Of a DNA stretch of 64,000 nt, positions 41,526 through 46,151 are shown piece by piece. Under the pieces are notes generated by a model. That model searched no databases and was not told the origin of the DNA. It was given only the letters and a program-made list of their open reading frames with translations. The translations under genes were made by a program, and so were the position numbers. The stretch lies in contig NZ_CP011125.1 of the NCBI RefSeq assembly GCF_000737325.1, positions 7,936,001 to 8,000,000 of the forward strand, in the 5' to 3' direction. The stretch comes from Sandaracinus amylolyticus. GTDB taxonomy: Bacteria; Myxococcota_A; Polyangia; Polyangiales; Sandaracinaceae. Each line of letters starts with the position of its first letter. The stretch's first letter is position 1.

Positions 41526-41906
41526 TCAGCAGTGATCGCGGATCACGTCGAGCAGCGTGTCGAGATCCACTGGCTTCCGCACGAACCCCGCGGCGCGCAT
41601 CCGCTGCGCCGCGGTGGGCCCGTCGGCGTGCGCGGAAAGCACGACGACGGGGATGCCCGCGAGCGTCGCGTCGTTCTCCTGCATCGCGCGGAACTGCCAT
41701 CCGTCGACGATCGGCATGAGGATGTCGAGCAGGATCACGCACGGGAGCCCGTCGACCTTCGCTTGCTCGAGCAGATCGAGCGCCTCGCGCCCGTTCGCCG
41801 CGGCGAGCGTGCAGAAGCCCTCGTCCGCGACGAGCTCCGCGAGGAGCTCGCGCACGTCGCGATCGTCCTCGACGATCATCACCAGCCGATCGCACGCGTC
41901 GGTCAC
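41526..41906 (-). CDS. Single-domain response regulator
   Basis: A 126-residue receiver-only protein with no output domain. D14 and D15 are in MIVEDD, the phospho-acceptor D61 is in LLDILMP, S91 is in VVLSAH, and K111 is in VRKPVD, so all active-site residues are present. The GTG start overlaps the TGA of the histidine kinase gene (GTGA at 41903-41906), which implies coupled translation and makes that kinase the probable phosphodonor. It likely acts by protein-protein contact or within a phosphorelay. The upstream part of the open frame is kinase shadow. Confidence 0.9.
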   Translation of the reverse strand: MTDACDRLVMIVEDDRDVRELLAELVADEGFCTLAAANGREALDLLEQAKVDGLPCVILLDILMPIVDGWQFRAMQENDATLAGIPVVVLSAHADGPTAAQRMRAAGFVRKPVDLDTLLDVIRDHC

Positions 41907-44329
41907 GCGAGCCTCCGCTCGTCTCCGCCGGGCACGCGCGGGAGCTCGACGACGAACCGCGCGCCCGCGCCGAGCCGGCTGTCCACGTGGACGCGACCTC
42001 CGTGACGGCACGCGATCTCGCGCGTGATGTAGAGCCCGAGGCCGAGCCCCGCGGCGTGGCGCGTCACCGCCGCGCGGTGGAAGCGATCGAAGATGCGCTC
42101 GAGCTCGTCGGGCGCGATGCCGACGCCACGATCCTCGACGACGAGGCGCGCGCGATCCGCGGCGCCCTCCACGCGCACGCTGATCGGCTTGCCGGCGCCG
42201 TACTGGATCGCGTTCGCGACGAGGTTCGTCGCGACCTGCGTGAGCAGCGTGCGGTCCCACTCGCCCGTCGCGTCGCCCGACGCCGCGATCGTCAGCTCGC
42301 TGCCCGCGTGCTGCGCGGCGTCCTGGAACGACTCGACGACCTCGCTCGCGAGCTCCGCGAGATCGACGTGCCCCGGCACGACCTCGAGGTGCCCCGACAC
42401 GATGCGCGACGTGTCGAGCAGTCGGTCGACGAGCAGACCGAGGCGGCGCGTCTGCCGCAGCGCGCTCCGCAGGCGCTTCTTCACCTGCTCGGTCGCATCG
42501 CCACCGACCGCGCGCTCGAGCGCGTAGATGCTGAGCTGCAGCGCGTTCAGCGGCGTGCGCATCTCGTGCGCCGCGATCGAGATGAACTCGTCGCGCAGGC
42601 GCACCTCCTGGCGCTGCTCGGCCGCGGCCAGCTCGGCCGCGCGCAGCTGCTCCTCGTCGGCGCGCCGGGCGATCGAGGCCGCGATGACGTTCGCCACGCC
42701 GCGCAGGAAGGTCACGTCCTCCGCGACGAGCGTGTGCGGCCGCCGGCGCAGCGCGACGAGCACGCCGTAGGGTCGCGCCGTGGGCTCGAGCGCCGGCACC
42801 ACCACCGCGACGCCGCTGCGCACGCCGTGCGCCTCTTCGAGCGGAGTGCGCACGATCGACGCGCGCTCGAAGTCGTCGACGAGCGCGGGCTCGCGCGTGG
42901 CCTCGACGTGCCCGACGAGCGTGCGACCGTCGAGCTCGACGCGCGCGCCGACCAGGTCGTCCGATCCACCGAACGCCGCCGCGACGCGCAGGCCCTCGGC
43001 GTCGCGGACCAGCAGCGCGACGAGATCCGCGCCGAGCACGTCGGCGCTCACCCGCACCACGCGATCGCCGATCACGTCGGGATCACGCCCGCGCAGCGCC
43101 GCGAGGCCGAGCTCCGCCGCCGCCTCCTGCTGCCGCGCGCGCGCCTCGAGCCGCCGCGTCGCGTGCCGCTGCTCGGTCTGGTCGCGCGTGACCATCGTGA
43201 AGCCGAGCAGCGCGCCGTGCGCATCGCGCACCGCGCTGATCACCACGTTCGCCCAGAACCGCGTGCCGTCCTTGCGGACGCGCCAGCCCTCGTCCTCGTG
43301 ACGTCCGTCGCGCTCGGCGATCACCAGCTCGCGCGCGGGCTTGCCCATCTCGCGCTCGTCGTCCGGGTAGAAGATCTCGAAGCGGCGTCCGATCACCTCC
43401 GCGCCGCGATAGCCCTGCAGCTGCTCCGCGCCCGCGTTCCACGTCGCGACGCGACCCTCGCGATCGAGCATGAAGATCGCGTAGTCCTTCACGCTCGCGA
43501 CGAGCAGGCGCGCGCGCTCCTCGCTCGTGCGCAGCGCTTCGTCGGCAGCGCGTCGCGCCGTGAGATCGCGGGTGACCTTCGAGAACCCCACGAGCCGTCC
43601 GCTCTCGTCCTGCACGCGCGAGATCACGACGTCCGCCCAGAAGCGCGAGCCGTCCTTGCGAACGCGCCAGCTCTCCTCCTCGACGCGCCCTTCCTCGGCC
43701 GCGATGCGCAGGAGCTCTCGCGGGCGACCGCGCGCGAGCGCGTCGGCCGGATAGAAGATCGAGAGGTCGCGCCCGATCACCTCGCTCGCGGTCCAGCCCT
43801 TGAGGCGCTCCGCGCCCGGGTTCCACGATGCGATCCGACCATCGGGCTCGAGCATGAAGAACGCGTAGTCCTTCACGCTCTCGACGAGCAGGCGCAGCCG
43901 ATCCTCGCTGCGACGAAGCGCCTGCTCCGTCTCGCGACGCTCGCTCAGATCGCGCACGACCTTCACGAACCCGCGCAGCGCGCCGCGCTCGTCGCGCAGC
44001 GCGGTGATCACGACGTCGGCCCAGAAGCGCCTGCCGTCCTTGCGAACGCGCCACGCCTCGTCCTCGATGCGCCCGACCGACGCGGCCTGCGCGAGCAGGC
44101 GCTGCGGCCTCCCGGCGCGCTGATCTTCCTCGGTGTAGAAGGCGGTGAAGCTCCGACCGAGGATCTCGGCCTCGCTCCAGCCCTTCATCAAGCGCGCGCC
44201 CTCGTTCCACCCGACCACGCGACCTTCGGTGTCCAGGACGACGATCGCGTAGTGCTCGATGCCGGCGACGAGCGCGAGCGCTTCGCGGCTGAGCACCTCC
44301 ATCGTCGACTGATCGCGCGCGTCGTCCAT
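41903..44329 (-). CDS. Hybrid-free histidine kinase with three PAS domains and a GAF domain
   Basis: An 808-residue soluble sensor kinase from the ATG at 44329, preceded by GGGAGCGGGCGAG; the ORF upstream adds 55 unlikely residues. Three tandem PAS/PAC modules (each with a WN.GAE/GWS..E pattern, and WRVRKDG.RFWADV) occupy residues 20-390. A GAF domain follows (about 410-560), then HisKA with H588 in AAHEMRTPL and HATPase_c with N-box NAIQYG, G1 DRGVGIAP and G2 GLGLGLYIT. No membrane span is seen, so it senses an intracellular signal. It is coupled to the response regulator by a 4-base overlap. Confidence 0.93.
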   Translation of the reverse strand: MDDARDQSTMEVLSREALALVAGIEHYAIVVLDTEGRVVGWNEGARLMKGWSEAEILGRSFTAFYTEEDQRAGRPQRLLAQAASVGRIEDEAWRVRKDGRRFWADVVITALRDERGALRGFVKVVRDLSERRETEQALRRSEDRLRLLVESVKDYAFFMLEPDGRIASWNPGAERLKGWTASEVIGRDLSIFYPADALARGRPRELLRIAAEEGRVEEESWRVRKDGSRFWADVVISRVQDESGRLVGFSKVTRDLTARRAADEALRTSEERARLLVASVKDYAIFMLDREGRVATWNAGAEQLQGYRGAEVIGRRFEIFYPDDEREMGKPARELVIAERDGRHEDEGWRVRKDGTRFWANVVISAVRDAHGALLGFTMVTRDQTEQRHATRRLEARARQQEAAAELGLAALRGRDPDVIGDRVVRVSADVLGADLVALLVRDAEGLRVAAAFGGSDDLVGARVELDGRTLVGHVEATREPALVDDFERASIVRTPLEEAHGVRSGVAVVVPALEPTARPYGVLVALRRRPHTLVAEDVTFLRGVANVIAASIARRADEEQLRAAELAAAEQRQEVRLRDEFISIAAHEMRTPLNALQLSIYALERAVGGDATEQVKKRLRSALRQTRRLGLLVDRLLDTSRIVSGHLEVVPGHVDLAELASEVVESFQDAAQHAGSELTIAASGDATGEWDRTLLTQVATNLVANAIQYGAGKPISVRVEGAADRARLVVEDRGVGIAPDELERIFDRFHRAAVTRHAAGLGLGLYITREIACRHGGRVHVDSRLGAGARFVVELPRVPGGDERRLA

Positions 44330-44451: not shown

Positions 44452-45123
44452 TCAGCTGTATCCGAGCACGAGCGCGCGTGCGAGCAGGTACCAACCATCG
44501 ACGAGCACGAAGAGCAGCAGCTTGAACGGCATGCTCACCTGCGTCGGAGAGAGCGCGTTCATGCCGAGCGCGAGCAGCACGTTCGCGACGACCATCTCGA
44601 CGACGAGGAACGGCACGAACACCAGGAAGCCGATCTGGAACGCCTCGCTCAGCTCGGTGATCACGAACGCGGGGAGCACGATGAGGAGGTCGTGCTCGGT
44701 CACCTCCGCGCGCTGATCGGCGGGCCGCGCGCGGCGCGCGAGATCGAGGAACAGACGCAGCTCGCGCGCGCCGGCGTTGCGCTCGAGGAACGCGCGCAGC
44801 GGCGCGACGCCGAGCTCCACCGCTTCGAAGAGCGCGTCGCTCGTCGACATCGGATCGGCGCGATCGATGCGCGCGACGGCGGGCGCGGTCGCGTCGACGA
44901 TCTGCGATCCGACCGGCGCCATCACGTAGAGCGTGAGGATCGCGGCGAGCGCGGTGACGATCGTCCCGCTCGGGACCTGCCCGGCGCCGAGCGCGTTGCG
45001 CAGGATCGAGAAGACGACCGAGATCTTCACGAAGCTCGTCGCCGTCATGAAGACGAAGGGCAGCAGCGTCAGCGCGCCGAGCGCGACGATCGTGACGAGC
45101 GGCAGCCCGGTCCCGTCCTGCAT
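44452..45123 (-). CDS. sctR: Type III secretion export-apparatus protein SctR (orphan)
   Basis: About 223 residues from the ATG at 45123, the usual size for SctR (FliP/YscR family). Conserved segments are FVKISVVFSILRNALGAGQVPS near residue 30, LPAFVITELSEAFQIGFLVFVPF near 145, and MPFKLLLFVLVDGWYLLARALV at the end. The -LVDGW- ending fits the injectisome branch rather than FliP. SctR forms the core of the export gate in the inner membrane with SctS and SctT. None of those, nor any other type III gene, is in the window. It may be a leftover or part of a scattered system. Confidence 0.85.
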   Translation of the reverse strand: MQDGTGLPLVTIVALGALTLLPFVFMTATSFVKISVVFSILRNALGAGQVPSGTIVTALAAILTLYVMAPVGSQIVDATAPAVARIDRADPMSTSDALFEAVELGVAPLRAFLERNAGARELRLFLDLARRARPADQRAEVTEHDLLIVLPAFVITELSEAFQIGFLVFVPFLVVEMVVANVLLALGMNALSPTQVSMPFKLLLFVLVDGWYLLARALVLGYS

Positions 45124-45305
45124 CCCGGCGCGAGCATCGGCCGCGGCACCGGAGAGGTCAACGGATAGCGTCGCTCGCGGCGTGCGATCGACGCATCGAC
45201 AGCTCGTCAGCGCAGCGCTGCCCGGGCGTGACGAAACGTCAGGACGCACTCGCGCGATCTCCGAGAAACGTCGCGGGGCACGTGCGTTGCTGAGGCGCGC
45301 GACGC

Positions 45306-46151
45306 ATGGCTCGCATCGCGATCGTGGTCACGCTCGCGCTCGTCGCGTGGCTCGCGGCGGGCGCGACGAACGCGCTCGTCTCGCTCGCGCTCGTCGTCGA
45401 CACGCCAGCGCGCGCACGCGCCGCCGCGCCGCCGTCCCCGACACGGATCGATCGCGGCTGCGAGATCCTCGCGCGCAACATCTTCGATCAGCGCGGCGCA
45501 CTCCCGTGCGAGGAGCGGACGCCGACGAGCACGGTCACGGCCGCCACCCCGAGCGCGCCCGCCGAGTGCACGGAGGGGCTCCGTCTCGTCGCGACCTACC
45601 TCGATCGCGACGCGCCGCTCGCGATGATCGCGCGTCCCACCGGACCCACGGAGCTCGTCACGATCGGCACGACGATCGAGCCGGGCACCATCGAGCACAT
45701 CGAGCGCGAGCACCTCGTGCTCGAGCGCGACGGCACGAGGTGCCTGCTCTCGATGTTCGCCTCGCGCGCGACCACGACGCTCGCGCGCACCGCCGCGACG
45801 CCCGAGCCGATCGCCGGCGCGCGCCTGCTCGACGATCGCATCGAGCTCGATCGCAGCGCGCTCGATCGCCTCGTGTCGGAGCCCGCGTTCGCGCGCCTCC
45901 GCGCGATGCCCGCGCCCACCCGCGATGGTCGTCTCGCGGTGCGCGTGCTCGGGATCGGACGCGATCATCCGCTCGCCGCGCTCGGTCTGCGCAGCGGCGA
46001 TCTCCTCACGTCGATCGACGCGCGCCCGCTCGACGGGCCCGACGCGTGGCTCGAGGCGATGACGCGCGCGCGATCACCGGGACGGCACGTCGTGGTCGTC
46101 GAGCGCGGCGGCGAGCGGCGCGAGATCGTCGTCGACCTCCTCGATCGCTGA
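45306..46151 (+). CDS. GspC-like type II secretion protein (orphan)
   Basis: A 281-residue protein with one N-terminal membrane span (residues 5-27) and a periplasmic body. The homology-region-like segment has ILARNIFDQRGAL at about residues 52-64, a motif typical of GspC, then DAPLAMI and GTTIEPGTIEHIEREHLVLERDG. A C-terminal PDZ-like domain follows (DHPLAALGLRSGDLLTSIDARPLDGPDAW). GspC links the inner-membrane platform to the secretin GspD. No other type II gene is present, so it is either an orphan subunit or a related adaptor. It is divergent from sctR. Confidence 0.7.
   Translation: MARIAIVVTLALVAWLAAGATNALVSLALVVDTPARARAAAPPSPTRIDRGCEILARNIFDQRGALPCEERTPTSTVTAATPSAPAECTEGLRLVATYLDRDAPLAMIARPTGPTELVTIGTTIEPGTIEHIEREHLVLERDGTRCLLSMFASRATTTLARTAATPEPIAGARLLDDRIELDRSALDRLVSEPAFARLRAMPAPTRDGRLAVRVLGIGRDHPLAALGLRSGDLLTSIDARPLDGPDAWLEAMTRARSPGRHVVVVERGGERREIVVDLLDR

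What the first reader, a model, noticed from the sequence alone, without database searches (positions are those of the whole stretch)
44452..46151. Orphan SctR next to an orphan GspC-like protein
A good SctR (type III export gate) stands alone, divergent from a protein with GspC marks (type II secretion). Neither has partner genes nearby. SctR needs SctS and SctT to form the export gate; a solitary copy is odd. It may be a remnant of a lost system or part of a scattered one with a hybrid role.
Basis: partly seen in the sequence, partly recalled or inferred. Interest (0 to 1): 0.5.

Follow-up and report, generated by a model that had tools for sequence, protein, structure and literature searches.

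The report
Scattered type III secretion gate
The lone sctR gene is one piece of a type III secretion core whose genes lie far apart across the chromosome of a soil myxobacterium, an arrangement shared by most sampled relatives in its order, while the neighbouring GspC-like gene is a stray relative of a type II secretion part whose link to it is weak.

Summary
Window 44452-45123(-) is a genuine non-flagellar SctR. Window 45306-46151(+) is a GspC paralogue (membrane helix, HR and PDZ domains), divergent, 182 bp away. The genome (Sandaracinus amylolyticus DSM 53668, judged by exact length) has one copy each of sctR,S,T,U,V,J,N,Q. Only S and T are adjacent; the rest stand alone, some megabases apart. 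This is neither a remnant nor peculiar to one genome: 40 of 56 genomes (own plus 55 relatives) hold all eight, nearly always dispersed, and six genomes in two lineages lack all eight. Flanking genes of the lone genes are shared between families, so the dispersal is old. sctR and sctN are strongly constrained. The SctR tree places it with clustered, secretin-less myxobacterial T3SS, the group that by the literature includes the M. xanthus predation T3SS*; the SctV tree agrees in part. I read it as a fully dispersed variant of that needleless export machine. No secretin of the genome passes the SctC cut-off, and SctU has lost the NPTH switch motif. A T2SS cluster with its own gspC lies elsewhere (gspC-F confirmed). 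The sctR-gspC pairing holds in 3 of 46 sctR loci examined; a hybrid role is unproven.

The parts
44452..45123 (-). sctR, export-gate pore subunit, non-flagellar type, 223 aa; sole copy found in the genome
45306..46151 (+). gspC2, GspC paralogue (TM helix + HR domain + PDZ), 281 aa, outside the T2SS cluster; membership in the same system not shown
45124..45305 (.). 182-bp divergent intergenic region between sctR and gspC2; in sister genome G002 a 585-aa gene lies between them
41903..44329 (-). context only: sensor-kinase-like gene (my reading of the ORF) downstream of sctR, kept in G002; not claimed as part of the system

Best explanation
The lone sctR belongs to a functional, secretin-less (needleless) non-flagellar type III export machine of the myxobacterial ('Myxo') type, whose core genes were dispersed over the chromosome long ago, probably before the order Polyangiales radiated. 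SHOWN: one copy each of sctR,S,T,U,V,J,N,Q in a closed 10.33-Mb genome at about seven places; the same dispersal in relatives; loss of all eight together in two lineages; strong constraint on sctR and sctN, below-median omega for sctS and sctT; SctR placed with clustered myxobacterial T3SS; three secretins in the genome, none over the SctC cut-off. INFERRED: SctR assembles with SctS and SctT into the inner-membrane pore, gated by SctV and SctU and fed by the SctN ATPase and SctQ platform on a SctJ ring, and exports proteins across the inner membrane. Without a secretin of its own, and in Sandaracinus without the SctU NPTH switch, it probably has no early-to-late substrate switch. It passes substrates to the periplasm or to another envelope machine, most likely a Tad/Kil-type one as in M. 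xanthus. GspC2 is probably an independent neighbour.
For: Single copies and places. Table of eight components in 56 genomes: 40 hold all eight, 6 hold none; R lies within 20 kb of another component in 1 of 49 genomes; S and T lie within 5 kb in 31 of 44, no other pair does in any; no all-absent genome in 10,000 independent shuffles. Lone positions shared between families: sctJ with the same kinase-like gene 5 of 5, sctQ with a related kinase-like gene within 6.2 kb 8 of 10, sctV with a 294-aa gene 4 of 6, sctN with a dnaJ-like gene 4 of 6, sctU with priA 3 of 5. Omega G000/G002: R 0.062, N 0.064, S 0.10, T 0.14 against the median 0.168 of 78 other genes. SctR tree: 46 dispersed plus 4 further Myxococcota loci in one clade (SH-aLRT 84), inside a clade (90) with clustered T3SS of Archangium, a Myxococcaceae MAG and Corallococcus, apart from 20 flagellar-type FliP. 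SctV tree: 6 dispersed SctV one clade (98), with the Corallococcus set (90), in a non-flagellar clade (99). FliO-like protein beside sctR in at least 13 of 44 loci, Pfam-confirmed in 5 of 5 of these tested and in 2 of 2 clustered Myxococcia sets. Best NCBIfam model is non-flagellar for T,U,V,J,N,Q. Secretins. Published M. xanthus T3SS*: PMC12075869, PMC10433427 (passages).
Against: In G000 SctT,U,V,J,N,Q score best as non-flagellar but fall under those models' cut-offs, and SctS passes both the SctS and the FliQ cut-off, FliQ slightly better. SctU lost NPTH and evolves fast (omega 0.39); NPTH is intact in 20 of 40 SctU recovered, replaced in 16, not alignable in 4. SctQ, V and J have omega 0.21-0.25, above the background median. 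The dispersed SctR clade has only SH-aLRT 84, and the SctV tree leaves the Archangium/Myxococcaceae pair unresolved instead of joining it to the dispersed set. M. xanthus itself was in neither tree. The Tad-cluster secretin has SctC as its top NCBIfam model (84.2 bits, cut-off 238.45; GspD 83.3). SctL, SctD, SctI, SctK and SctF were not searched. In G000 no FliO lies beside sctR. Many relatives are drafts, so 'different contig' is weak evidence of distance; the firm cases are G000, G002, G041 and G053. The all-or-none count does not control for relatedness. Expression and secretion are untested.
Confidence: 0.78

Rival explanations
1. Remnant: the genes are decaying leftovers of a lost clustered T3SS, as M. 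xanthus T3SS loci were once annotated.
For: SctU has lost the NPTH motif in G000 and in several lineages and has omega 0.39; ten genomes hold only 3-7 of the eight components (partly draft genomes); several scores are below curated cut-offs.
Against: All eight ORFs are open in G000; sctR and sctN lie in the most constrained quartile and sctS, sctT below the median; all eight are kept in 40 of 56 genomes and lost together in two lineages; SctN has a Walker A sequence (read from the translation).
Confidence: 0.07
2. Hybrid: GspC2 works with the dispersed export gate, its HR domain linking the gate to a secretin (T2SS GspD or the Tad one) because the T3SS has no secretin of its own.
For: Divergent neighbours in G000, one gene apart in G002 and, in another arrangement, in G005. 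GspC2 has the HR fold that binds secretin in the GspC-GspD complex. In family f1 the six genomes with full-length GspC2 (G000,G002,G003,G005,G007,G009) are the same six that have a non-NPTH site in SctU, and the three without it (G001,G004,G008) keep NPTH; G006 (75% complete, NPTR) left out.
Against: That coincidence is at most two independent events and fails outside the family: NPTH is lost without a full-length second GspC in G023, G034, G046, and G022, G028, G044 have a second GspC with NPTH intact. GspC2 is unlinked from sctR in G003, G007, G009. GspC2 evolves fast (omega 0.43). T3SS-less genomes also have second GspCs.
Confidence: 0.06
3. Left-over flagellar export gate rather than a non-flagellar T3SS.
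For: FliO, long thought flagellum-specific, sits beside sctR in at least 13 of 44 loci; SctS scores about equally as FliQ.
Against: SctR passes the yscR and fails the fliP cut-off; SctJ is 254 aa with YscJ as best model, FliF far behind; trees separate the set from the flagellar-type FliP and FlhA of the same relatives; FliO is reported in Myxococcota non-flagellar T3SS (PMC12403147, passages).
Confidence: 0.02
4. The dispersed genes have each been repurposed separately and no longer form one machine.
For: No close links except S-T; unrelated neighbours (priA-, recR-, dnaJ-, gdhA-like).
Against: Loss of all eight together in two lineages; the gate subunits depend on one another structurally (known for FliPQR-FlhB, PMC9380563, passages).
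Confidence: 0.05

Closest known systems
Myxococcus xanthus needleless T3SS* (MXAN_2434-2464) and the 'Myxo' short/long NF-T3SS loci of Cystobacterineae (PMC3459982 section 9 and passages; PMC12075869, PMC10433427 passages)
   Same: Core R,S,T,U,V,J,N,Q; no secretin of its own; FliO beside R in part of the order; SctR groups with clustered Myxococcia sets, SctV with the Corallococcus one
   Different: Clustered there, dispersed here; here in Polyangiales, reported there in Cystobacterineae; SctU NPTH lost in Sandaracinus. M. xanthus sequences themselves were not compared
Scattered NF-T3SS of Chlamydiales (at least four loci, three with core genes; PMC3459982, passage)
   Same: T3SS spread over several loci
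   Different: Core genes share three loci there (secretin present: recalled); here each gene stands alone except S-T, in large free-living genomes
Flagellar export gate FliPQR-FlhAB with FliO
   Same: Homologous gate; FliO retained in part of the order
   Different: Separate clade; a clustered flagellar-type set is present as well in 21 of 56 genomes by my assignment (score and gene order, not scanned with flagellar models) but not in G000
GspC of the type II secretion system
   Same: TM helix, HR and PDZ folds
   Different: Not in the T2SS cluster, below the GspC_delta cut-off, 32% identical to the genome's own T2SS GspC

Membership tests
SctR/YscR (TIGR01102) | Score over curated cut-off, and under the flagellar cut-off | tested here: met
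   220.6 vs cut-off 208.6; fliP 184 under 217.45
Myxo-type needleless NF-T3SS | Core export apparatus, ATPase, SctJ, SctQ all in the genome | tested here: met
Myxo-type needleless NF-T3SS | Groups with Cystobacterineae T3SS in trees | tested here: inconclusive
   SctR: one clade with Archangium, Myxococcaceae and Corallococcus sets, SH-aLRT 90. SctV: with the Corallococcus set 90, Archangium pair unresolved. No bootstraps, M. xanthus not included
Myxo-type needleless NF-T3SS | No T3SS secretin | tested here: met
   three secretin ORFs in G000, none over the SctC cut-off; the Tad-cluster one has SctC as top model at 84.2 of 238.45 bits
Myxo-type needleless NF-T3SS | No needle SctF or translocon | not tested
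Myxo-type needleless NF-T3SS | Genes in one locus (as described in Cystobacterineae; not taken as defining) | tested here: not met
   dispersed; this is the variant feature
Myxo-type needleless NF-T3SS | Role in prey lysis | not testable with these tools
   needs deletion strains
Canonical injectisome | SctU NPTH autocleavage motif | tested here: not met
   G-AG at the aligned site in G000 and G002
Canonical injectisome | SctC secretin | tested here: not met
Flagellar T3SS | Falls with the flagellar-type sets in trees | tested here: not met
   (rooted on the flagellar-type rows)
GspC of T2SS | TM helix, HR domain, PDZ domain | tested here: met
GspC of T2SS | Encoded with other gsp genes; passes GspC_delta cut-off | tested here: not met
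   no gsp neighbour recognised; 129.7 vs 150 bits

The most novel reading that the evidence does not exclude
In Sandaracinaceae a GspC paralogue has been recruited as the missing periplasmic link of a secretin-less, dispersed type III gate: its HR domain would hand substrates released by SctRST to a borrowed secretin (T2SS GspD or the Tad one), which would fit the loss of the SctU substrate switch in exactly those members of the family that keep GspC2.
Probability: 0.06. Interest if true: 0.85.

Novelty: new variant of a known kind. Interest (0 to 1): 0.58.

Why it matters
A secretion machine of at least eight parts is usually encoded as one gene block. Here most sampled members of an order keep the parts as single genes at old, shared places, and two lineages have lost all of them together. 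That shows a T3SS can persist with almost no operon linkage, widens the needleless myxobacterial T3SS to the Polyangiales branch, and gives many natural variants (FliO beside sctR or not, SctU switch kept or lost) for testing what the early non-flagellar T3SS did before secretins were recruited. It also warns that cluster-based T3SS detection misses such systems. In the searches I made (listings, and passages of seven papers) I found no report of this dispersal in Polyangiales; one paper notes multiple copies of SctR and SctV in Myxococcia and Polyangia at the level of gene counts (PMC11509652, passages).

Tried and rejected
Considered and rejected: (1) PDZ hits beside sctQ in many relatives looked like a second T3SS-GspC link. 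They are about 150-aa lipoprotein-like PDZ proteins in an old tmk-PDZ-sctQ neighbourhood, and T3SS-less genomes still have PDZ hits (not checked one by one), so I do not count them as evidence. (2) A split sctU in Archangium proved to be a full SctU with NPDH plus an extra ORF like the FlhB C-terminal domain. (3) A GspC2/NPTH-loss correlation: perfect in nine genomes of family f1, absent outside it; kept only as the novel case. (4) A first SctU motif count read one locus on the wrong strand and was replaced.

Dropped or weak rows: in the table I assigned copies to the dispersed or flagellar set by hand from contig context and score; G019 and G024 count with three weak components; G014's S, T and N were left out as ambiguous; the SctN of G001 is a partial hit below the cut-off; the SctR of G025 is a fragment. 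SctR loci were fetched for 46 of the 49 genomes with R (not G019, G024, G025); my gene caller found sctR in 44 of these 46, tblastn in the other two. SctU was read in 40 of 41 genomes tried (G017 gave no hit). G006 (75% complete) was left out of the GspC2/NPTH comparison. Omega rests on one genome pair. L163 is the same locus as G042's, so it is not an independent row. L093's small gene beside sctR is DUF3634, not FliO. Both trees are quick ones with SH-aLRT only.

Full report
WHAT IS THERE. Window 44452-45123 on the minus strand encodes a 223-aa SctR. It passes the curated cut-off of the non-flagellar model (yscR 220.6 vs 208.6) and fails the flagellar one (fliP 184 vs 217.45); PF00813 gives 203.7 bits. 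Divergently, after 182 bp, window 45306-46151 encodes a 281-aa GspC-like protein. It scores 129.7 bits on GspC_delta (cut-off 150) and 27.1 on PF11356 (cut-off 27). Its AlphaFold model (mean pLDDT 66, seven sequences) has a long N-terminal helix, a six-stranded HR-like domain and a PDZ domain. Foldseek matches the GspC HR domain of the ETEC GspC-GspD complex (3oss_C, rmsd 1.8, TM 0.86 by target) and the EpsC PDZ, below several DegQ hits to the PDZ part. The genome is one contig of 10,327,335 bases, exactly the length listed for Sandaracinus amylolyticus DSM 53668 (PMC11509652, table passage).

THE REST OF THE T3SS. Whole-genome family searches find one SctR (7,980,470), one SctS and SctT side by side (5,745,331 and 5,745,630), one SctU (1,959,241), one SctV (5,797,173), one SctJ (5,477,661), one SctN over the cut-off (9,784,844) and one SctQ (9,104,144). 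In gene calls around each I recognised no other T3SS gene: sctV lies by recR-, YbaB- and dnaX-like genes, sctU by priA, sctN by a dnaJ-like gene, sctJ by a kinase-like and a gdhA-like gene, sctQ by a kinase-like and a heme O synthase-like gene (neighbour names are my readings of the sequences). The nearest pair after S-T is T-V, 51.5 kb apart. The sister genome G002 has the genes in the same neighbourhoods.

THE ORDER. Across 56 genomes (G000 and 55 relatives) I tabulated the eight components of the set that is not in a flagellar-type cluster (copies assigned by hand). 40 hold all eight, 4 seven, 4 five, 2 three and 6 none. S and T lie within 5 kb in 31 of 44 genomes; no other pair is within 5 kb in any genome. 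sctR is within 20 kb of another component in 1 of 49. The six empty genomes are the five sampled of one genus (G012, G020, G040, G047, G050, completeness 95-100) and G036 of another family, which keeps only a flagellar-type cluster. In 10,000 shuffles that deal each gene's absences independently no all-absent genome appeared (relatedness is not controlled). Neighbours of the lone genes are shared between families: sctJ with the same kinase-like gene in 5 of 5 genomes compared, sctQ with a related kinase-like gene within 6.2 kb in 8 of 10, sctV with a 294-aa gene in 4 of 6 (two of one genus), sctN with a dnaJ-like gene in 4 of 6, sctU with priA in 3 of 5. So the dispersal is old, probably older than the order's radiation (inference). 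In at least 13 of 44 sctR loci a small membrane protein of one family adjoins sctR; Pfam calls it FliO in 5 of 5 tested, and also in the clustered sets L165 and L168, as if fliO-sctR were carried off together (inference). A small neighbour of another kind (L093) is DUF3634.

WHAT KIND. A tree of 146 SctR/FliP (46 dispersed, 20 flagellar-type from the same relatives, 80 from genome contigs; rooted on the 20) puts all dispersed SctR and four further Myxococcota loci, one of them a duplicate, in one clade (SH-aLRT 84), inside a clade (90) with clustered T3SS of Archangium, a Myxococcaceae MAG, Corallococcus and other MAGs, next to rows I take to be injectisomes. A 45-row SctV tree agrees in part: the six dispersed SctV form one clade (98), with the Corallococcus set (90), in a non-flagellar clade (99), but the Archangium/Myxococcaceae pair is left unresolved in that clade. 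M. xanthus itself is in neither tree. The clustered sets L165 and L168 carry J, L, N, Q, FliO, R, S, T, U and V in that order (J and L read by eye). Abby and Rocha described such 'Myxo' NF-T3SS, without secretin or SctF, in Cystobacterineae, and argued that they are functional and basal (PMC3459982, section 9, and passages). In M. xanthus one such system, T3SS*, acts with the Kil/Tad machine in prey killing and lysis (PMC12075869, PMC10433427, passages). FliO in Myxococcota non-flagellar T3SS is in print (PMC12403147, passages). G000 has three secretin ORFs: GspD in the T2SS, PilQ, and one in a Tad-like cluster. None passes the SctC cut-off of 238.45; the Tad one has SctC as its top model at 84.2 bits, GspD at 83.3.

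FUNCTION OR DECAY. Between G000 and G002 (Nei-Gojobori) omega is 0.062 for sctR, 0.064 sctN, 0.10 sctS, 0.14 sctT, 0.21 sctQ, 0.21 sctV, 0.25 sctJ, 0.39 sctU and 0.43 gspC2; 78 neighbouring genes have median 0.168, quartiles 0.092 and 0.259. The pore subunit and ATPase are well kept; SctU and GspC2 are the loose ones. In G000 T,U,V,J,N,Q score best on non-flagellar NCBIfam models but below their cut-offs. The SctU NPTH motif is intact in 20 of 40 SctU recovered, replaced in 16 including G000 and G002, and not alignable in 4; one further genome, G017, gave no hit. I read this as loss of substrate switching in a machine without a secretin, not as decay of the whole, but it is the best argument for the remnant rival.

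GSPC2. The genome has a T2SS cluster from 1,265,590 onward with its own GspC (341 bits), GspD, GspE and GspF over their cut-offs and three pilin-like ORFs that no model named; the fetched stretch ends before any gspK-M. So GspC2 is a second copy outside that cluster. In family f1 full-length GspC2 occurs in G000, G002, G003, G005, G007 and G009; in G001, G004 and G008 I found only the canonical GspC (not listed for G004) and other PDZ proteins. It adjoins sctR in G000 and, past one gene, in G002; in G005 one leucine-dehydrogenase-like gene separates them; in G003, G007 and G009 it is elsewhere beside other genes. The six with GspC2 are the same six of nine whose SctU lacks NPTH (G006 left out), but this is two lineages at most and fails outside the family. 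A hybrid role stays open at low probability.

VERDICT. Observation confirmed; 'scattered system' right, 'remnant' not supported, 'hybrid' unproven. It is a fully dispersed variant of the known needleless myxobacterial T3SS. I found no report of it; scattered NF-T3SS as such are known from Chlamydiales and others (PMC3459982, passage).

Noticed in passing
L130-L142 (e.g. L130:7075-7527); G000 copy L126:8815-9261: A roughly 150-aa lipoprotein-like protein with a GspC-type PDZ domain sits near tmk and sctQ, often tail to tail with sctQ, in many order relatives; in G000 it is still near tmk but far from sctQ.
   Followed up: partly
L165:10989-11243 and L168:12869-13141: Clustered Myxococcia T3SS carry, behind a full SctU with NPDH instead of NPTH, an extra ORF resembling the SctU/FlhB C-terminal domain.
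   Followed up: partly
L124 (sctJ), L125 (sctQ) and relatives: Both lone sctJ and lone sctQ have a Ser/Thr protein kinase-like neighbour shared between families; clustered L164 also ends with a kinase-like and an FHA-like gene (read from sequence).
   Followed up: no
L169 (BNCN01000001.1, titled Comamonas sp. KCTC 72670): SctR and SctV group with Corallococcus and the gene order matches, so the record title may be wrong or the assembly mixed.
   Followed up: no
L290:4087-5220 (G008), L109:7929-8651 and L289:3887-4393 (G004): Unusual proteins in family f1 carry a GspC-like PDZ domain on unrelated N-terminal parts.
   Followed up: no
L172, L174, L178 (Myxococcales MAGs CSSed): These SctR relatives keep S, T and U within a few kb but loosely spaced, possibly an intermediate between clustered and dispersed states.
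   Followed up: no
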